Under the pieces are notes generated by a model. It did not search any database. It was given only the letters and a program-made list of their open reading frames with translations, and had not been told where the DNA came from. A program made the position numbers and the translations under genes. From Ischnura elegans (lineage: Eukaryota; Arthropoda; Insecta; Odonata; Coenagrionidae), in NCBI RefSeq assembly GCF_921293095.1, contig NC_060251.1, forward strand, positions 57,739,585-57,803,584: DNA of 64,000 nt, in the 5' to 3' direction. Of the stretch, positions 7,665 through 63,901 are shown piece by piece (within the stretch, counting starts at the first letter, position 1; every line of letters starts with the position of its first letter).

Positions 7665-27438
<19,774 letters not shown>

Positions 27439-32546: not shown

Positions 32547-35500
32547 CTGTTGGGGGCAAATTGAAATCATGGTGTAGTCCTGATCGGGCCTTTCTTCATT
32601 CAGCCAGTGGTCATTCATGTCATTCAGTAAACATTTCCCTTATTTTTTAACATCTATGCTTAAGCCTTTGTACTTGCTATTTCAATGCAATTATCCAAAA
32701 ATTTTGCTTCTATCATTCAAATAAAAGTTTTGAGATCACTTGTTGCCTATTTACTGACAAATAGAGCACAGGCCTGGGGTATTGAACCTGTGTGTTGAAA
32801 ATTATTGACTGAAATCGTTAGTTCATTTCATTTTAATTGCCTTAACTTTCCTGCAATCCAAATACAGGATTTTAAAGGAAAGGTTGTAACATTTTCCTTG
32901 AAAGCTGAAGTATTTGTCATTAATATACTCTATTTAGGGTTTTTATCCCAAAATTTAAAGCAGATTTTTCAGTGCAGCTTTATCTTATTTACTTGCAGAA
33001 AGGAAATCCAGTTATTTGTATAAATTATTTAATTTTCTTTCCACCTCTTGACTCTTCCTTTTCAGTTTTTTTTAGCTTGTAAAATAACTGCTCTCTTAGT
33101 TTGTGTCATTGTATATTATGAAGTAGAACATACTCATGGAGGCATACATTTATGTTTTAGTGCTCTCGGGCTAAATGGTTCATTGACATTTTATTTTTTT
33201 TTTGTGTTACCTTAAGACTCATTTCAAGAAATCATTTACCTAAAAATTAGAGTCTATTCATAACATGCTTTTATTACTTCTTCAGTAGATTCTTGAATGT
33301 CACTATTCATTTGGGAAATTGCCTCCATTACATTAAAGGGTTTTTATCATCAGTAAGCATACTAATTTTGTGTGTAGGTAATAGGCAACATGTAATTATG
33401 GGGGAAAAATAATATTCTGGTATATAATAACAAGGCATATAACATTCAGACTTCTTACTCCTAATGTGATTTTTGTGTTTTCATAGCCAATTAGTAAAAA
33501 TAGGATGTCATAAAGGTACATTAGATATTTTCCAGGGAAACATTTTGGAAGAAGATAGCCTATCAATTGTATGTGCATTCAATTATGACTGTGATGCAGT
33601 CTACAACATATGAGTTTGTAAAATAAATCCTGCCGGTTGACTTAGTTGGAGAAAGGTCAGAAAAGACTTGTTGGTGGATAGTGTTGGGGAAGTTAGATAA
33701 ATTGAATAGAGAATGATATTGCTGAATGATTATTTCCTGTTTACTCTGGTCCCCAACCAGAGTAAAAGTAGCCCAAGATTCTGTACAATAGAGCAGCACC
33801 AGATAATTTGCTGCTCGGTCTGATTATACTATTGAGTGCTGAAGAAAATGAGGTGAGTTTCTAGGGTTAGGCAGTGACATAAGAGTTGAAGCAAATGTTT
33901 AGAGTAATGCCACCATGGATTAGGCAAGAGTAAGGAATTTAATTCAGAAGTGCTTGCGGGCTAGTGTTGCCATTAGATATCTTTAACGGGTCAAATCATG
34001 AATTTTGTTGAAAAAAGCATTTTATGTGGTTTTCTCCATATTTTCACTGTGCATGTAACACCAATTTTGTATTCTGATTTGCAAAATATATATTTCTATT
34101 TGACCTAAAGTGATACTTCCTAAAGGAATGAAATTTTCAGGTAGGTTAAGGTTTTGTCTACATGAATATTTCATTCCTTGTCATTCAAATGATAACTAAA
34201 ATCCATGCACAGCCTGTGATTGTGCGATAAAATATTTATTTAATTCTTAGTAAATAAATTGTAATTATTCAGTGAGTGTGAATTTAGTGATATTTTATTT
34301 CATCTAGCGGACATTCTTTGGAAAGGGTTCTTACACAGTGGCTATAAGGTGATTCCTAGTGGAGGTTGGACTCCTGCGCCCTCTGCCAAAAGGTCGGCCC
34401 CATGCCTCCCCACTCTCACCCTCACTACCTTCCCTCACCCCTACAAACTCCTCTGGTTGCCCTGCGTAAAGCCATTCCACTGACCCTGTGGAGAGAAATT
34501 GGAAATTAAGGTTGTATTAAAATTTCCATATTAATCTTCTAATCTCAAAGCAATGATAAATACACTCATGATTAAGGCACTCATATCTATTCAAAGCCTC
34601 CTCTTATTACACAAGGGGGTGAGAAGCCAAGGGTTACAAGTAATTTTCTTTCTAAACAGAGTTAGGTACCGCAATTGATTGAAGAAATATACAAAAACTT
34701 GGTGGCCAAGGGATATGAATGAGTATATGCTCTGTGCTGACATAGAGTGGAAAATCAAATGTCAAGTTGATCTTGTATTTTTATTTACCTAATTTCTGCA
34801 CTTAACTCTGTTTAGAAAAAATAACTTGTACCCCTTGGCTTCTCTTCCCCACAAATGTGTTTTGAATAAGTTGTGACGTTTGCATTGATGATAGTTCAAA
34901 ATTAAATTTTTGTTGTTTTGTCTAATATCAATATCAATGCTGTTATTTTCCCCTTGATTTTGGTTAGAGATGCATAGTTGATCATCTATGGTTGTAACTA
35001 TAGATTTCTACTTGATTAGAATTATTGAATGAGTGATATATTCCTGAAAATAAGAATTAAATTCCTGTATTCAGTTAAGGCACAAACTCCACTGTGCTAG
35101 TTGTCCTCCTGTAAACAGTACTTTATCATGTTCATGTTGGTCTGAGGTTGGATTTTGGGAAAAGTTACTTCAAAAGGTACTTCATATTTGAAATAATTAA
35201 TTTCATAGTTAGTTGAGTGCAGAAAATCATTTTCAGTTCATAATCTTGGCTTGATGTGCTCTTCAATGCAACATAGCCAAATTCTACAGTGATTCCATTT
35301 GCATAAAAGTAAGTGACCACTGACCTCAACTGTGGAGCAATTTAATAATAGGGTAGCGGATTTGAGGAAAATGGACGCTGTAGTTAAAAATAAAAGGAAG
35401 GAAATAGCTTTGGTGAAAGAGGCATGTAGGAGTGTTTACAAAAGGCTAACAAAGATATACTTAAGAATACTTATTCGAGTTTCCAGAAGTTACTCAAAGC

Positions 35501-36647
35501 ACTCAGATAGGTATTTAAGTACCCATGCAGTCATGAGGGTATTTAAGTACTTAGACTAATCGGCAAATACCTTGTGGTAGACTAATTCATTCCCACCTTT
35601 GGTACAATCGGAATATGGACCTGGGGACATGTCATCTTTCTGTAGCCAAGCACTCTATCCACCTGGCTACCATGCCCATATATTTACTGCATATTTCTTT
35701 AACACATTTTTCAAATTGTTCCCTAAGTCCATATTAAACTACAGCAATGGTAAAATTCCCATACTATGTGCATACTGAACTCAACTGATCATTGGTTTGA
35801 TATTTTCAAGGTTGATAAATACGTTTGTAAATGTCCGTGCTTGTTTGCTTGTTTATGTCAAAACCATGGTTTGTTGAGTCCAATATGTACTCTTGGTAGT
35901 ATACAAGTTACCAGTGTTTTATTTTAATATGGATATCAAATGTTATGGATACAAAATACAGCCTAGTAGGGAGTTAAATTTTGCCTCCAGTATTTTCGAT
36001 TCCCCTGCAAATTTTTCTCCATGTTCAAACTTGCACTATACATTTTCCTTGAGGATGACTGAGCTTGATTTAATGCAGCATCACCGTTCCTCCTCACCTC
36101 GGGGTCCCTCCTCCACCTCCGCTTCGCCTCCGCTCCTCTTTCCGCCCCACGGGAAGAAGGCCCTTGGGGCCTCGCCCTTCGGTCCCCTCTTTCCTCCCCA
36201 TGCGTTGAACCGGCTCCTCTTGCCGCCCCACGCGTTGAATCCCACCCTCTTGTTGGCCTCCTCTGGTGAGCCGGACGCTCCTCCCGGTCCTCGAAGCCCG
36301 TCCCTCAGGCCCAGCACCCAGCCGAGGGCCCCGCCGCGGAACGCCGACGATCCGTCCGCATCCGCGCTTCGCTTACCGCCCCACGCGTTGAAGCCCACCC
36401 GCTTGCCGCCCCACGCGTTGAAGCCTACTCGCTTGGCCGGCTCCCCGTGGTCGCCTCCCCCTTTGGCGTCCGCCGCCTCGTCCGCTTCTTCCTCGAGGGG
36501 CAGCCGGGGAGGTTCGTCCGCGCCCGGGGCGGAGACTCCGGTGCAGGGCGAGTCGCCTGAGGACGCGGGTGCGCTGGCCGCCGCGGATAGGGTCGCGAAG
36601 GCGGCCATGTTGGCCAGCAGCAGGCAGAGGCCGTGGCTCGGCTTCAT
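32393..36647 (-). CDS. Insect kinin (leucokinin) neuropeptide precursor
   Basis: Secreted prepropeptide cut at dibasic sites into amidated kinins (C-terminus FX1X2WG-amide), which act through a G-protein-coupled receptor on Malpighian tubules and gut. The main exon (36680-36098, ATG at 36647-36645) encodes a signal peptide (about residues 1-26, MKPSHGLCLLLANMAAF...). It then carries VGFNAWGGKR three times, SRFNAWGGKR once, and APRAFFPWGGKR once. A second exon (from 32546 or 32541 down to 32393) encodes RRAAGADFFPWGGKRSSL and stop, a sixth kinin. The first exon ends CGAG before a GTGAGG donor; reading through instead gives a stop at 36083-36081. Direct joining is in frame only with the acceptor that starts the exon at 32541. 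The stronger CAACAG acceptor (32546) shifts frame, so another exon may intervene. The exon is far more GC-rich than its surroundings. Confidence 0.85.
32560..34610. other. Kinin intron / AT-rich, nothing recognised
   Basis: Most likely intron of the kinin gene. I see no further WGGKR-type repeat. A minus-strand frame near 33800-33563 has no recognisable domain. Confidence 0.5.
34615..34850. mobile_element. MITE family GGTGAGAAGCCAAGG, copy 1
   Basis: A 236-bp element with roughly 45-bp inverted ends (GGGGGTGAGAAGCCAAGGG and its inverse), each including the word AACAGAGTTA. Short ACAA words flank both ends. Non-coding. It lies in the kinin intron. Further copies are at 62515-62759 and 63902-64000. 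Confidence 0.8.
35585..35690 (-). mobile_element. tRNA-derived SINE
   Basis: On the minus strand, GGTAGCCAGGTGGATAGAGT is a good A-box-like tRNA head, and GGTCCATATTCC stands where a B box should be. Diverged. It lies in the kinin intron. Confidence 0.55.
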
Positions 36648-36680
36648 GTCGCTCGGCTGGCTGAGAGTCCCACTGGGGAC
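36098..36680 (-). CDS. Kinin precursor exon with signal peptide and five kinins
   Basis: The acceptor TAGTTTACAG ends at 36681. The 5' untranslated part is 36680-36648 and coding runs 36647-36098 (183 codons plus one base), with donor GTGAGG at 36097. All five kinin cores (FNAWGG four times, FFPWGG once) are followed by KR and have the glycine needed for amidation. Confidence 0.88.
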
Positions 36681-36744
36681 CTGTAAACTAGAGCAGAGGA
36701 ACGTCAGTTTTGGGAGAAACCTAAAGGTGTGCTTTCTCTATGTA

Positions 36745-38430: not shown

Positions 38431-39040
38431 TAAGACTACATGTTAACATTGCATTGAATATCTATGAAATTAAGTCGCTGACTTATTATTCTTTCACTTC
38501 TATGCTTGGATGCCCCTTGGTAAACACATGTGCGAAGTTTCACAAAAATCTCCTCAATGTCAATGGAGCGTGCCTGCCACCTCAAGCAGTTGATGTGCAT
38601 GATATTGTGATAATGGTGCCTTGCCTTTGACTTTGGATTCATAGTTTGAAGGCGAAGGGACGCTCCCTGTGGCCTGCTTTTGAGCGGCGCGCGTGTGGAA
38701 TTGTTATCTGCTTTGTGTTGGCGCCAGTGAATGCCAATTGAGAGCCCTCCGTAGACAAACAGATTATCTCTGTCGTTTCCGTGTGATTTGGCTCGAATCC
38801 ATTCAGGCGCGCGTCTTTGTGTGAATCTGGGGGGTATGGGGAGACATGGCGACTCCATTGGATGAAATGGGGTGCAGCACGACGACGCGTTGGGGTGTGG
38901 TTTGTGAGCAGGATACTCGCAGGGCATTGTAACCTGATGAATATGTTGTACATCGAAACAGAGATCCAGTCAAATTAAATCTAATGCATAAGTCGGCAAT
39001 CTTAAGATTGTTAGAGCGTAGGTTTCCGCGGCGATGGTCT

Positions 39041-39230
39041 GATCTCTGCATTTCTCCAGGGTTTTCTTCCGCGTCAGGTTGTTGGTTGATTGACAACAGT
39101 TTCGCTGGCAGTCCTGCCAGCGTCCTCAGGTCACCTTCGACCTGAGGACGCTGGCAGGACTGCCAGCGAAACTGTTGTCAATCAACCAACAACCTGACGC
39201 GGAAGAAAACCCTGGAGAAATGCAGAGATC
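39041..39230. repeat. Perfect 91-bp inverted repeat with hammerhead-like cores
   Basis: The arms 39041-39131 and 39140-39230 are exact reverse complements with an 8-base spacer. Each arm, read outward, contains CCTGAGGA, a stem CGCTGGCAG/CTGCCAGCG, then AAACTGTTG. This is the order of a hammerhead core (CTGANGA, stem II, GAAAC), although the first base of GAAA is shared with stem II. Such cores mark the terminal repeats of Penelope-like elements. A LINE fragment abuts the right arm. Confidence 0.85.
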
Positions 39231-39244
39231 AATCTTAAGATTGG

Positions 39245-41139: not shown

Positions 41140-42930
41140 TGGAAATTTGTGTAAATCACTCGCTGCTTCCGTCAAATCACTAGTGTCACTCCCTACCTCG
41201 GAGTTAACACTTATTGGAGCGATTTTTGGCTTCTGCGCAAAGGAAAAATATTTAAATTGCAGAACCTGAGATGAAGGGATGATTATTACTGGCCGATGCC
41301 GGCGAAATGGTTTGTTTCCGTATTATTTATTTCGATTGGAAATTTTTACTAACATAAAAATTAAACTTCACGAAGAAGGAGAGGTATCAGGGTTTCAATA
41401 AACTGTATGTATGTTAGTCTTTTATTTTCTAGGTTTTTATATTTCCTTTAATGATGCTGATGTTGAGATTTCATCGTTGGCTCCAGCCTTTGGTTAGGCC
41501 TTGCGCTGCCACCGTAAGCTCCCTTGTTCATATTCTTAATTCGCAGCGCGACGTTTGCTTTTCTTGGTTTCTTTGACGGCATCACGAACTGTCTAAGTAT
41601 GTACTAAGTGTCTCCCGTGACATCATCCGCGATTAGTGACGTCGTAGGAGACATTCCATTACTTTCTCCCTCTCTCTCCACTGTGGTCCACTGCCACGGA
41701 ATTTCATCTCGAAGATTTGTCTCCCATCATTTTCCAACGTCCACCCTGTAAGGGACCACGGCCAACCCCCACGAAGGACATACACTTCTCCCTCGTCTCC
41801 GAGAGAGAATCCGCCCATCATCCCCGCATCTCTCTCGTTTTCATCATTTTCCCTTTTTTTATTTTCGCTCCTCATTCGCCGAGCGAGTGGGGTCGGGAGG
41901 GGAGGGCTGTCGGCCACACGAGTAATACCCTCTCATCTCCGTTCCATTTTGGAGTGGGAGCCATTAAGATTGGGTCAATCACATTTCATCCGCTTGGATG
42001 CCACCCCGTGATGTGCACTCCGTGTTTCTCTTCTGTTTTTTTATTAATTTCACTCTCCTCATTACCCCTTCTACATTTTCACGTCGCCTTTGGCCGCTTC
42101 GAATGTACCGACAGCAACAACAACAACAACCCACAAGAATTTACAACCCTGTGCAGCTTATTAATGCTCTTCTAATTATTTATCGGAAAGAGGCTCGTGT
42201 GCTATTTTTTTACGCCGTTTCTGATGAGGTAGTTGGCAGGCCCTGGTTTTTTGCTGTCTTTTTCATTCATCAGTTGCATTAACTGCTGTTCGTATTTTCG
42301 GCGGCGAAACAGTGTTATTTAGTATTTGCTGTGTTTGAAGTTACTTACCCGAACATGGGATGGGATCTTCAAAATTTGTTTAAATCACTCGTGGTTTTCG
42401 TCAAATCACCAATGTCGCCACCTACCTCGGAGTAAATATTTAATTTATTTATTTATTGGCAAATGCGCAATGTTGAAACGGCAAAATCAGAAATATCTTA
42501 GTGAGTCTGATTCGGATGAATGCGTTTGTTTGATGTTATTTATTTCGATTATAAAATTTAATTCGCATCACATTTAAAGCTCACGAAGATGATGTATCAA
42601 GATTCTGATGAAGTAGTAGGATTCTGATGAATGCGTTTGTTTGATGTTATTTATTTCGATTATAAAATTTAATTCGCATCACATTTAAAGCTCACGAAGA
42701 TGATGTATCAAGATTCTGATGAAGTAGTAGGCTGAAGTGCCGGTATTTGTTGCGGACTTTTTCATTCATCAGTCGCATTATCTGCTGTTCATATTTTCGG
42801 CGGGGAAACAGTCCAGAAACGACGGCGAAATCTTCCAATAAAAGTAATAAATCACTTTCATTTTATAGGTTTTTCTTTCTTAAATGATACTGAAGTTGAG
42901 ATTTCATTCTTGGCTTTGGCTTTTGGTGAG
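41140..42930. repeat. Region of diverged direct duplications and a 111-bp tandem pair
   Basis: 42515-42736 holds two nearly identical 111-bp units. Older copies of neighbouring blocks are also visible: 41150-41225 resembles 42376-42440, 41450-41500 resembles 42880-42930, and 42260-42310 resembles 42762-42812. A (CAA)n tract lies at about 42112-42131. 41640-41990 is pyrimidine- and GC-rich. No gene recognised. Confidence 0.65.
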
Positions 42931-43649: not shown

Positions 43650-44055
43650 TATTTGATGATTACATAAAAGTCGAAACGGGTCGCACGTATGTAAGCTTTG
43701 TGGAAGAGTACCAGAATGTGTGATTGGAGTTAGAGAGCTTGTGGAATTTGAGTTTTTCCAGGCGTATAGTTCGAAGGAATAATTCTCGGGTTTTCCTCCG
43801 GGTGTTGTTTTGTGGAACTGGTCCCAACGTTTTGAAGGCTGAGTCTGCCATCGTCTTCAGTGGTAGAATGTGGAGCCAAGTTCTTGTCGTTGTTTATACC
43901 ATCTCTTTGTCGCTATTTACGCTTGAGCGGCACTCGAGGCTGTTAGTATCGACAAGAACTTGGCTCTACATTTTACCCCTTGAAAATAATGGCAGACTCA
44001 ACCTTCGAAACATCCCGAGAATCATTCCCTCTTTAGAGATCATGTGTAGTCGTAG
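43650..44055. repeat. Foldback cluster with hammerhead-like cores
   Basis: A plus-strand GATGATTACATAAAAGTC-GAAACGGGTC lies at about 43655-43690. A minus-strand core (CTGAAGACGATGGC, then AAAACGTTGGGACC) lies at about 43868-43815. A plus-strand relative (AATGGCAGACTCAACCTTCG, AAAC) lies at about 43988-44012. The last two form imperfect inverted arms that include GAGCCAAGTTCTTGTCG. The pattern fits head-to-head Penelope-type terminal repeats, worn. Confidence 0.5.
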
Positions 44056-56823: not shown

Positions 56824-57518
56824 TAGCCTGGTCAAATTAGCCCAAAAAAAGGGGGTACCCTTGCATAAATTGCCAACAAGCTGAAAATTTCCAGGACCGT
56901 TAGGAATACCTCTCCAATGAAATCCTGAAAAGTCCACATCGATCCCGTGTGTGCAAAAAGTTTTATTCAAGGTCAAAGGTCACAAAAATGGGTTTTTTGG
57001 ATTTTTCGGCCAAACGGTTAGTTTTACGATAAAAATTGCTCAGTTCAAAATTGTAGAGCAGTTAATTTTCTACCAAATTGTTACCATACTTTTTTCTATA
57101 AGATTTATCATTTCTGAGATAGAGCCATTCGTAATTACCCGAAACTGTATTCTCAGTAATATGCTTAACTATATTATTGCGCTCTCTGAACATTATTGGA
57201 CACGTAACACGCGTATTGCTCGAATGGCTCTATCTCAGAAATGATAAATCTTAGAGAAAAAAGTATAATGACAATTTTGTAGAAAATTAACTGCTCTACA
57301 ATTTTGAACCGTGCAATTTTTATCGTAAAACTAACCGTTTGGCCGAAAAATCCAAAAAACCCATTTTTGTGACCTTTGACCTTGAATAAAAATTTTTGCA
57401 CACACGGGATCGATGGGGACTTTTCAGGATTTCTTTAGAGTGGTATTCCTGACGCTCCTGGAAATTTTCAGCTTGTTGGCAATTTATGCAAGGGTCAATG
57501 TCTATTTTGACCGGGCTA
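56824..57518. mobile_element. Long-arm foldback MITE, ends TAGCCTGGTCAAA
   Basis: A 695-bp element with about 290-bp inverted arms around a short centre (about 57135-57215). It begins TAGCCTGGTCAAATTAG and ends with the inverse of TAGCCCGGTCAAAATAG, flanked by TAT. Each arm yields the same short frame (KVKGHKNGFFGFFGQTVSF), which is only a by-product of the palindrome. Superfamily not assigned. Confidence 0.85.
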
Positions 57519-60500: not shown

Positions 60501-62510
60501 ATGATTTATAACAAAAATTTGTGTAAGGTGCTGGGGAAAATATTTAAACTACCATAAAAAAAACGTAATTTTGTATTACAAAATTCATTTTCCACAACTT
60601 TGGAATTTTAATTTGGCGGGTCGTAAAAATATACGAAGGTCTAGTGATCCAGGGTTAATAATTAATTCCTCAAAGTTAAAGTATTCCCTCAATCATGACT
60701 TCCGTGCTTAAATCTTTAACTTAGGCGTCAAAATTTGCAATCACGAGTCCCGTCCTCATCATTCCCGAGGATTTCGCCGTGGTATTCCTTGGGGAAGGAT
60801 TCCGCTTCATCCTTACTTCTTAGTATTTAACGGAATCCGCCGTTTCTATTACACTATCTGGGGGTTTGACTAAGGGACGTAGACGTGAGGGGCATGAGAC
60901 CCGAGTTCACCTCAAGATTAGGGGATCGTTATCTTCCACCGCGGTCCCTTTAGTCTTCGAAGGGTACGGGCATAAAACACGGGACTCTCCAGCGTGTGAG
61001 TGAAGCGTTGGGAATAGTCTGTGCCGAAGCGAGCCGTCCCAAATGCATGCGTATCCGCCGCCTCTGCAAATATTTTCAGCGACAAGCTCGCTTGGTGAAT
61101 GGAGGACGGATATGCATGTTTTCATCTCTCGCGGTCTGTCGGTTTTTCTGCGTGTACTGGCTCGCTAGTTGACCATATATCACCGCCCGGACGTTGTGAC
61201 ATTTCGCCCTGACCTTGAGACTTGGTCTTTTTTTTTTTTTAATAATCGCACCTACGAAATTCTGATGGAGATCTGAATTTTCGCCCCGCTGTGGAAGTGT
61301 TCGACGGCTTCTCATTTTCCTAGTTGATCCTTTCCGGTTGATGTTGGAGGAGTAATATGGATGATCATGCATAATTTGTATATTTTTGGGAAATACTGAG
61401 TCCATTACTTCTAATCAAACTGTTGCTAAATTATGTAAAAAATATATCGGAATATTTGGAAAGTGACTGTGTGCTGCGAGATTTTTAAGATTTATTTATA
61501 TTTACTTTTGTGCTAAAGCTGCTGATAGAAATATTTTACCGTTGTAAAGTCATGATTAAATGATTGATTCATCTCATTCTTTCGTGTGCACTTTTTAAAT
61601 ACGACTTTTGATGTGTAAATTATAACTTTCTCCACTGTTTCTTTATTCGTGTTACAACGAAAAAACGTATTTAAGTTATCGGAGGTTAAATATTGGCTAA
61701 TTTTTCAACGTAGCTGTAGGGAGTGTGATATCTGTGCCATAATCCTTCCGATTAACGCTGTAGTCGGTAGTATTTAATGGTTTAATTTAACGGTGCATAA
61801 TTTATGAAAACACAAAAACTGGAAGTGTGTTGTTAACATATTTGAAGACAAATCATTATTAACAAAAAAATTAAAGCTTTACCAACTCTACAGTTGCTCT
61901 CTGGTTGAATCGCATGAACTTACCAAGGCATGTACTGGAAGTGAAGAGGCTCGTGTTTTAGGTGCAAGTCTGTTCTGGAAGCGCTATATAACCACAGTTG
62001 AGGAATTGTTTATTTTTGATGGAATAATAATATGATATCAGCGTTTAGTTAGGTTTGAATTTTTGGCTTAGGGAAGTTAAGTTCTTTTTTTTCACATAAA
62101 TGGATCGTGTTGAGCGTTAATTGAAGTAAAATAATTTCTTACTGTAATTCTTGAGATATTTTATACTCTTTTCCGATTGAGAGGTGTATTCATACGACTT
62201 TATTGATATTTTTATTTAAAATCGTCTTCGAATATTGCCAAAGTTTTGTTGGCCATACTAACAATTCTTTCTATAATAACTAATTCTTATTTTCCGGTCT
62301 TCATTTGGTAATTACGCGTGTATCTTATTTAAAACTTATTTCACGTATTGTAATGTTGTATCATATTACATATACGTTGTACAACCCACCTTGATGTAGC
62401 TTCTGAACTTCTTCCCTTGGCTATTTAGCTGCGTGATTTGGTGGGATTCAATTAGACTTAATTGCTGAAACTATTATCTATTTAACTATTATTATTACAT
62501 ATGAGTGGGT
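57525..62510. other. No gene recognised
   Basis: AT-rich, with scattered short frames lacking domains. 60880-61200 is richer in GC and CpG, but I see no exon there that I can support. Confidence 0.5.
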
Positions 62511-62514
62511 GAGA

Positions 62515-62759
62515 AGCCAAGGGGTTCAAGTTATTTCTTTTTCTTAACAGAGTTAGGTGCAGAAATTAGGTAAAGAAAACAAACGAGATCAATTAGATAT
62601 GCAGTAGTTGTACTTGATTTTCCACTCGAAGTCAGCACAGAATATAGACTCACTCGTAACCCTTGACAACCAAGTTTTTGTATATTTCTTCTAATTATTA
62701 CCTTTACCTAACTCTTTTTATAAAAATAATCACTTGTATCCCTTGGCTTCTCACCCCCT
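62515..62759. mobile_element. MITE family GGTGAGAAGCCAAGG, copy 2
   Basis: A full-length relative of 34615-34850. Its inner sequence runs in the opposite orientation (TTGTATATTTCTTC here against GAAGAAATATACAA in copy 1). Confidence 0.8.
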
Positions 62760-63901
62760 CATATATGGTTAAAAGTACGTTTTTATTAGCAATAGTTTTA
62801 GCAGTGAAGTCTAATTTAATCCCCCCAAATAGTAACAGCGTCGTTGTAATTGGTTGATTTTAGGCCGCATGCAATTTGTTTGATTATACGAGAGTGACCG
62901 TTTTCTGCAATAGGAATGCGTAAAATGTCAAAAGTGATTGGGTAGTGACACAAGAGACGCGGCAGTTTGGTGTGCATGAAATCTCGAGGCAGCATTCGGA
63001 GAAAACTTTCTATGGGAGGTTTCCTGGAAATATTCAAGCTGTCTCCGTAGTTTCGACTGCGGGGATGCGGCGCCGCGCCGTTACTATATCAAGTGTTTTT
63101 GAAAGATTTTGTAGATAAGAATCACTGGTGTAAATGAAGAGCGGGAATATCGAATGAATATTTTGGAAGCTGTATTCGTGGAATGCAGTCAAATGCTCAT
63201 GTTCTGTTGTTTTAAAAGGTATCTGACTCTCTTGTCAAAACATTAAGACAAAAAATTAAATATGGTGATTAAATTAATCGTATGCCCATGCTTAGTTGCG
63301 CATGTAAACATCATCAGGTCTAAGGTTGAGTATGCAGTGGATTAATGATGAAGAGAGAGCTTGTAAAGAAAAATACCTATTGGTATGAAAAATGCCTGAG
63401 GATATTTAAAAAATATTTTTTAATCATAAGGAAATTTCACAACGCTAGGCCCAGAAAATTATTTTTAATGACATAATTTGGATAATTTTTCCCTCTAGTG
63501 ACGAATCTATGTCATTAAAATGCCAGTGTGTCATGCAAGACGGAAACTCAGTTTAGAATATGTACGGATCATGAGCTCCATAAGTTTCCGTTTTCCTGTT
63601 CTTTGAAACAAGCGATACTTACTACATTTTAGCATAAGTTGAGCCTAATGGAAAATTATTACAGCCTATTACTTTAATTAGTTCCCATTAGGTATAAAGG
63701 GCTAAAGTATTCGTACCTTGTTACTTTATCGTCAGATCCAGGATGAATTAAAATGAATTGGAACCCAGACTAAAATTAAATTATTCGTATCGCACTCCGA
63801 GCTTTTGCTGCTGTGAAAAGCGTGTTTTTTTAAATCTTATTTATTATTTTTAAAGTCAAAGAGCTGAAATGGTTGATCGGTGTAGTTTTGTTTTCATTTT
63901 A

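What the first reader, a model, noticed from the sequence alone, without database searches (positions are those of the whole stretch)
39041..39230. Perfect 91-bp head-to-head palindrome carrying two hammerhead-like cores
Both arms are identical, with an 8-base spacer. Each arm has CCTGAGGA, a 9-bp stem and AAAC, the layout of a hammerhead ribozyme known from Penelope-like terminal repeats. Perfect arms in an otherwise worn region imply a very recent event, a foldback conserved as a unit, or an assembly artefact. It abuts a LINE fragment.
Basis: partly seen in the sequence, partly recalled or inferred. Interest (0 to 1): 0.75.

Follow-up and report, generated by a model that had tools for sequence, protein, structure and literature searches.

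The report
Two-headed Penelope retroelement scar
The perfect palindrome is most likely the footprint of a small Penelope-like jumping-gene insertion in which two copies of the element's end were written head to head, and its uneven ends fit a laboratory finding about how these poorly understood elements copy themselves.

Summary
The palindrome is real: 93-nt arms, 100% complementary, 6-nt spacer. It belongs to a 219-nt insert (39011-39229) flanked by a 14-bp direct repeat found only twice in the window. Only the left arm has 29 extra nt. Each arm carries a hammerhead-like core, CUGAGGA-C-stem-GAAAC-UGUU-GUC (0 of 20,000 arm shuffles). Rfam finds no hammerhead, but the published Penelope-like element PAc has the same core layout. 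A second, older, related head-to-head pair lies at 43737-44032, again with a tail on one arm only. Counted from hammerhead A9, arms end at 82-84 and 113 nt (main), 82 and 118 nt (second). PAc most often starts reverse transcription 111-118 nt into its ORF and has an optional 30-40-bp tail (PMC11167929). Best reading: a truncated Penelope-like insertion, probably primed from both nicked target strands at two start sites. Snap-back of one cDNA is the main rival. Against: no coding Penelope element found, no significant overall similarity to PAc, host genome not held.

The parts
38997..39010 (.). left copy of the 14-bp direct repeat CAATCTTAAGATTG (itself a perfect palindrome), read as target-site duplication
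   Evidence: the 14-mer occurs twice in 64 kb, only at the two edges of the insert
39011..39039 (-). one-sided extension ('tail'), 29 nt (31 if the two bases shared by the right arm and the duplication are given to the duplication); 19 of 29 bases are A or C on the element's sense strand
   Evidence: present on the left arm only; compare the 31-bp and 30-40-bp optional tails of Penelope elements
39040..39132 (-). left arm: truncated Penelope-like terminal sequence, sense on the minus strand
   Evidence: related to 43889-43737
39092..39129 (-). hammerhead-like core of the left arm (CTGAGGA-C-GCTGGCA/TGCCAGC-GAAAC-TGTT-GTC)
   Evidence: same layout as PAc
39133..39138 (.). 6-nt spacer ACCTTC at the head-to-head junction
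39139..39229 (+). right arm, sense on the plus strand, without tail (the perfect palindrome runs 2 nt further into the duplication, to 39231)
39142..39179 (+). hammerhead-like core of the right arm
39230..39243 (.). right copy of the 14-bp direct repeat
43730..43736 (.). second pair: possible 7-bp target-site duplication TTAGAGA, left copy
43737..43889 (-). second pair, left arm with 36-nt tail and hammerhead-like core CTGAAGACGATGGCAGACTCAGCCTTCAAAACGTT
   Evidence: 70% identity to the main arm over 83 columns; local score 31.5 against a shuffle maximum of 22.0 in 2000
43890..43949 (.). second pair, 60-nt spacer between the arms
43950..44032 (+). second pair, right arm, tailless, with a 36-nt internal gap relative to the left arm
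   Evidence: 53 of 62 plus 16 of 18 positions identical to the left arm
44033..44039 (.). second pair: possible 7-bp target-site duplication TTAGAGA, right copy

Best explanation
The palindrome is a short insertion derived from a Penelope-like retroelement (PLE). Two 5'-truncated copies of the element's hammerhead-bearing terminal sequence (pLTR / start of ORF) stand head to head, flanked by a target-site duplication; the element's 3' ends face outwards and one carries the optional tail. Proposed mechanism (inferred): a dimeric PLE enzyme nicked both strands of a symmetric site (CAATC TTAA GATTG), 14 nt apart. Each strand offered the same 3' end (...AAGATTG) and each primed reverse transcription on PLE RNA, one at the outer start site (with tail) and the other at the inner start site about 30 nt upstream (without tail). 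The two cDNAs ran a short way, to about the 5' edge of the hammerhead core, and were joined there through the short inverted repeat AGGTC-ACCTTC-GACCT. Filling in the gaps would duplicate the 14 bp. Shown here: the palindrome, direct repeat, one-sided tail, hammerhead-like cores and a second related pair with similar end points. Inferred: PLE origin, two-strand priming, and the manner of joining.
For: Insert boundaries and 14-bp repeat. Hammerhead-like core: 0 of 20,000 arm shuffles, 1 hit in 60 whole-window shuffles (the descriptor was written after seeing the motif). PAc RNA, as printed in PMC11167929, has the same core layout, CTGAGGA-T-G...GGC-GAAAC-GTC, with one pyrimidine between A9 and stem II as here, and its A9 is the A of the start codon. 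A second related pair in the same window: local score 31.5, 0 of 2000 shuffles reach it. Ends counted from A9: 82-84 and 113 nt in the main insert, 82 and 118 nt in the second. PMC11167929 (parts 1-3 of 4 read; passages) reports for PAc: reverse transcription starts inside the RNA at two adjacent sites, most often in a stem loop 111-118 nt into the ORF; the stretch between the two sites is the tail, elsewhere described as an optional 30-40 bp; both target strands are cut and extended, with no difference in start site; cuts at 5'-ATT-3' in AT-rich DNA; a predicted dimer. PMC3846280 (passages): the typical A. vaga Penelope structure has inverted pLTRs, a 31-bp tail at only one of them, 8-10-bp duplications where present, and palindromes at the mostly head-to-head junction.
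Against: No reverse transcriptase or GIY-YIG sequence was found: of 10 chosen ORFs scanned with Pfam only the MCM ORF matched a family above its cut-off. Apart from the core layout, the arms show no significant similarity to the 361-nt PAc RNA: 343 (main), 638 (second left arm) and 1875 (second right arm) of 2000 shuffles score as well. PAc has a start codon ATG at A9; both families here have ACG. Rfam calls no hammerhead, and helix I is weak or absent. The PAc text read does not say which of its two start sites lies at 111-118 nt, so matching it to the outer end is an assumption. The tail boundary of this family is known only from these two copies. The second pair's duplication is short, and its open frame runs past the proposed left edge (43663-43893). 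Both arms of the main insert stop at exactly the same base, which two independent cDNAs would do only with a common template end or a junction set by the short inverted repeat; a single snap-back explains this more simply. In A. vaga Pen1 most copies have pLTRs in direct orientation only, and some inverted copies lack a duplication, so the two-ended route cannot be the only one.
Confidence: 0.6

Rival explanations
1. Same PLE origin, but one cDNA only: the first cDNA started at the left target strand (with tail), folded back at its 3' end through AGGTC-ACCTTC-GACCT, copied itself and was joined to the other side. A related published view is self-priming, which its authors say would have to use an antisense template.
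For: A 5-bp stem with a 6-nt loop sits exactly at the junction, and both arms stop at the same base. PMC3846280 favours self-priming for palindromic inverted junctions (passages).
Against: Copy-back would have to stop 29-31 nt short of the start, at nearly the same place as the tailless arm of the second, independent pair (82-84 against 82 nt from A9). The second pair has a 60-nt spacer, not a tight loop.
Confidence: 0.3
2. A palindromic DNA transposon remnant (MITE or foldback element).
For: The window holds several other inverted repeats of MITE type.
Against: A 14-bp duplication fits no DNA transposon superfamily that I recall; the outer ends are not inverted repeats of each other because of the one-sided tail; and the related second pair has the same one-sided tail.
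Confidence: 0.04
3. A terminal hairpin of a parvovirus-like (densovirus) element left in the genome.
For: Small palindromes nested inside a long palindrome recall parvovirus termini (recalled).
Against: No match in viral contigs to two exact arm patterns, a weak test. The 14-bp repeat, hammerhead-like cores and related second pair point to a retroelement.
Confidence: 0.01
4. Assembly or chimeric-read artefact.
For: Perfect palindromes can arise by template switching in libraries (recalled); no reads were available.
Against: A 14-bp repeat lies outside a 29-nt asymmetric extension, which a simple fold-over of a read would not make, and a decayed second example exists in the window.
Confidence: 0.03
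5. A non-LTR retrozyme (small hammerhead-bearing non-autonomous element).
For: Metazoan retrozyme RNAs are about 170-400 nt and carry type I hammerheads (PMC7229834, passages).
Against: Those occur as direct tandem repeats; here the copies are inverted, with a one-sided tail.
Confidence: 0.02

Closest known systems
Penelope insertions of Adineta vaga with inverted pLTRs (Pen2a_Av and others, PMC3846280)
   Same: inverted pLTRs, optional 31-bp tail on one of them only, target-site duplication, palindromes at inverted junctions, mostly head-to-head (passages)
   Different: those pLTRs are about 181-218 bp and in the examples described mostly flank an ORF (in some cases captured unrelated sequence); here the arms are 91-93 nt, nothing lies between them, and the duplication is 14 bp and itself palindromic
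Poseidon from Anolis carolinensis (PAc, PMC11167929)
   Same: same hammerhead core layout, down to CTGAGGA plus one pyrimidine before stem II; reverse-transcription start 111-118 nt into an ORF that begins at A9; tail; ATT targets; both strands cut and extended
   Different: vertebrate element studied in vitro; no significant similarity outside the core; PAc has an ATG where these arms have ACG; the parts read (1-3 of 4) do not describe an ORF-less inverted pair
Metazoan non-LTR retrozymes (PMC7229834)
   Same: short non-coding insert with type I hammerhead-like cores
   Different: direct tandem rather than inverted; canonical rather than minimal hammerheads

Membership tests
Penelope-like element, complete and autonomous | ORF with telomerase-like reverse transcriptase and GIY-YIG endonuclease | tested here: not met
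   the insert is 219 nt; 10 chosen ORFs of the window scanned with Pfam, none RT or GIY-YIG. It is therefore called PLE-derived, not a PLE
PLE-derived terminal (pLTR) insertion | inverted, head-to-head terminal copies | tested here: met
   second pair
PLE-derived terminal (pLTR) insertion | optional tail of about 30-40 bp on one copy only | tested here: met
   29-31 nt, depending on two shared bases, and 36 nt in the second pair
PLE-derived terminal (pLTR) insertion | target-site duplication | tested here: met
   14 bp, exact, though no empty site could be seen; second pair 7 bp, weak
PLE-derived terminal (pLTR) insertion | hammerhead at the pLTR/ORF junction with the PLE core layout | tested here: met
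   same layout as PAc; the start codon at A9 is ACG, not ATG
PLE-derived terminal (pLTR) insertion | sequence homology to the terminus of a coding PLE | tested here: inconclusive
   one distant PLE (PAc, 361 nt) compared: not significant, 343, 638 and 1875 of 2000 shuffles as good for the three arms. No eukaryote genome or repeat library is held; pattern scans gave no relative that I could use
Hammerhead ribozyme | Rfam model match at gathering score | tested here: not met
   whole window; also nothing at E up to 10 on 701 nt and 129 nt
Hammerhead ribozyme | conserved core CUGANGA - stem II - GAAA - short helix III - UH cleavage site | tested here: met
   with one pyrimidine between A9 and stem II as in PAc. 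Stem II of the second left arm keeps 5 of 6 pairs, one with changes on both sides; the second right arm keeps 3 of 6
Hammerhead ribozyme | helix I next to the cleavage site | tested here: inconclusive
   the arms are cut off at the core; with the spacer read as upstream sequence the predicted fold pairs only a short interrupted stretch
Hammerhead ribozyme | self-cleavage | not testable with these tools
   needs a bench assay

The most novel reading that the evidence does not exclude
Inverted head-to-head pLTRs with a one-sided tail, a recurrent oddity of Penelope-like elements, are the product of a symmetric, two-ended reaction. A dimeric enzyme nicks a two-fold symmetric target on both strands, and each strand primes its own cDNA at one of two alternative start sites in the RNA. 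The 39011-39229 insert is a minimal natural product of that reaction, on a perfectly palindromic target.
Probability: 0.4. Interest if true: 0.65.

Novelty: new member of a known kind. Interest (0 to 1): 0.45.

Why it matters
How Penelope-like elements integrate is unsettled. The 2013 description explained inverted junctions by self-priming, for which it proposed an antisense template; the 2024 biochemistry found internal initiation at two sites and extension of both target strands. Two inserts in one window whose tailed and tailless arms end at matching distances from the hammerhead link the two observations, and suggest a genome-wide test: measure where the tailed and tailless arms of inverted pairs end, and whether the duplicated target is symmetric.

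Tried and rejected
Rfam at gathering score on the window and at E up to 10 on 701 and 129 nt: no hammerhead. The miRNA families that match the palindrome below their gathering scores (MIR6135 80 bits against 99, mir-4526, mir-4874) probably just like long hairpins. mir-4879 aligns with the tail without gaps (15.6 bits, E 0.6, cut at the stretch end); a paper search for that name found 0 papers, so it was dropped. Parvovirus-like termini: two exact arm patterns gave no hit in viral contigs, and the paper search gave 0 papers. Plasmid collection: no match at E up to 0.01; the phage and E. coli collections were not searched. Prokaryote contigs: one 20-base match in a Rhodobacteraceae contig, the remaining similarities at E 1.3 or worse, taken as chance. 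A Penelope-type hammerhead pattern in viral contigs gave 16 stretches. I looked only at each match with 30 bases before and up to 110 after, saw nothing that I recognised as the arm, made no alignment, and used none as evidence. A pattern from the sequence shared by the two pairs gave 0. A profile built from the three arm sequences found four hits in the window at E 1.3e-15 or better, all of them the arms already described (three of the four went into the profile, and the fourth is the perfect complement of one), and three more at E 0.51, 1.7 and 4.7, taken as chance. Literature: in the listings, abstracts and passages seen I met no description of an ORF-less inverted pair or of two-strand priming as the cause of inverted pLTRs. 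Most listed papers were not opened, most subscription papers are not held, and three that I asked for were not held. Papers seen: PMC11167929 parts 1-3 of 4 and passages; PMC3846280, PMC6155905, PMC7229834, PMC8969392 and PMC12910113 passages only.

Full report
What is there. The window holds a perfect inverted repeat, 39040-39132 / 39139-39231, 93 nt per arm with a 6-nt spacer. It is the longest perfect one in 64 kb with spacer 3-100 nt; the next has 33-nt arms, and three mononucleotide shuffles had none of 14 nt or more. The strand 38997-39243 folds at -139.9 kcal/mol as DNA, z -30.7, with 0 of 200 shuffles as stable.

Boundaries. The 14-mer CAATCTTAAGATTG occurs exactly twice in the window, at 38997-39010 and 39230-39243. 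It lies directly right of the palindrome (overlapping it by two bases) and 29 nt left of it. The unit is therefore read as a 219-nt insert, 39011-39229, with a 14-bp duplication, and the left arm has an extension of 29 nt (31 if the two shared bases are given to the duplication) that the right arm lacks. The duplicated 14-mer is itself a perfect palindrome; the window has 14 perfect 14-bp palindromes in all, the two copies included. G+C is 53% in the insert against 38% in the window.

Hammerhead-like cores. On the sense strand each arm reads CTGAGGA-C-GCTGGCA-GGAC-TGCCAGC-GAAAC-TGTT-GTC-AATC. A descriptor of that layout was matched by 0 of 20,000 dinucleotide shuffles of the arm and once in 60 shuffles of the window. 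It was written after the motif was seen, so the test is not blind. No Rfam hammerhead model matches at gathering score, or at E up to 10 on the two stretches tried. PLE hammerheads are described as usually minimal, lacking helix III and tertiary contacts (PMC6155905, passages), so this does not exclude one. The methods text of PMC11167929 prints the RNA of the Anolis element PAc. Its core reads CTGAGGA-T-GCC...GGC-GAAAC-GTC: the same seven bases, one pyrimidine, a stem starting with G, then GAAAC and GTC; and A9 is the A of the ATG. The arms here have ACG in place of ATG. Outside the core there is no significant similarity: 343 of 2000 shuffles score as well for the main arm, 638 for the second left arm and 1875 for the second right arm. 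With the part 3' of the cut alone, 403 (main) and 898 (second left arm) of 5000 do. The arms end at the 5' edge of the core, so helix I is missing or weak and no activity is claimed for this copy.

A second pair. A low-stringency search with the arm found a match (itself not significant, E 0.85) next to an older inverted repeat at 43829-44011. Dissection gives a left arm 43889-43737 (sense minus) and a right arm 43950-44032 (sense plus), 53 of 62 plus 16 of 18 positions identical, with a 36-nt gap in the right arm and a 60-nt spacer. The left arm carries CTGAAGACGATGGCAGACTCAGCCTTCAAAACGTT, again hammerhead-like. It is related to the main arm: 70% identity over 83 columns, local score 31.5 against a maximum of 22.0 in 2000 shuffles. 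Stem II keeps 5 of 6 pairs in the second left arm, one with changes on both sides, and 3 of 6 in the decayed right arm. Against that boundary, the open frame on the minus strand runs past it (43663-43893).

Matching end points. Counted from A9 of CUGANGA as base 1, the tailed arms end at 113 nt (main) and 118 nt (second), and the tailless arms at 82-84 nt and 82 nt (82 in the main insert if the arm is cut at the duplication). In PAc, where A9 is also base 1 of the ORF, reverse transcription starts inside the RNA at two adjacent sites, most often in a stem loop 111-118 nt into the ORF. The stretch between the two sites is the tail, described for D. virilis Penelope as an optional 30-40-bp extension. 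The protein cuts and extends both target strands, prefers ATT in AT-rich DNA, and is predicted to be a dimer (PMC11167929, parts 1-3 of 4; passages). The text does not say which of the two sites lies at 111-118, so setting it against the outer end is my assumption. In A. vaga the typical Penelope insertion has inverted pLTRs with a 31-bp tail on only one of them; duplications of 8, 9 and 10 bp are given for single copies, others have none, and Pen1 copies mostly have direct pLTRs only (PMC3846280, passages).

Reading. I take the insert to be PLE-derived (about 0.88) and, with less certainty (about 0.55), to have been made by priming on both nicked strands: one cDNA from the outer start site, one from the inner, joined at the short inverted repeat AGGTC-ACCTTC-GACCT. 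The palindromic target offers the same 3' end, ...AAGATTG, on both strands. The main rival is snap-back of a single cDNA (about 0.3), which explains better why both arms stop at the same base and worse why the tailless arms of two independent pairs end at the same distance.

Limits. The host genome is not held, so copy number, a coding PLE and an empty site could not be sought. Ten chosen ORFs were scanned with Pfam and none is RT or GIY-YIG. Zero differences in 91 positions allows up to 3.2% divergence, so the insertion need not be very recent. Pattern scans of viral and prokaryote contigs and a plasmid search gave no relative used here.

Noticed in passing
36084-36737 (minus): Open frame with repeated FNAWGGKR units (VGFNAWGGKR three times, RFNAWGGKR once, one FFPWGGKR), like an insect kinin neuropeptide precursor (identity recalled; no Pfam match).
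   Followed up: partly
20484-20846 (plus): Exon-like frame matching the MCM ATPase domain (Pfam MCM, E 8.2e-36), which fits a eukaryotic source for the window.
   Followed up: no
56857-57495: Large inverted repeat, 275-nt arms 95% complementary with an 89-nt spacer, MITE-like; not hit by the arm profile.
   Followed up: no
17099-17304; 34615-34850; 62436-62830; 9094-9267: Further inverted repeats of MITE or foldback type; those at 34615-34850 and 62436-62830 share a GAGAAGCCAAGGG stretch.
   Followed up: no
42509-42731 and 11059-11255: Near-perfect tandem duplications with 111-bp and 94-bp units.
   Followed up: no
39011-39050 (minus): Weak ungapped match of the tail to Rfam mir-4879 (15.6 bits, E 0.6), perhaps a miRNA entry that derives from a similar retroelement, perhaps chance.
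   Followed up: partly
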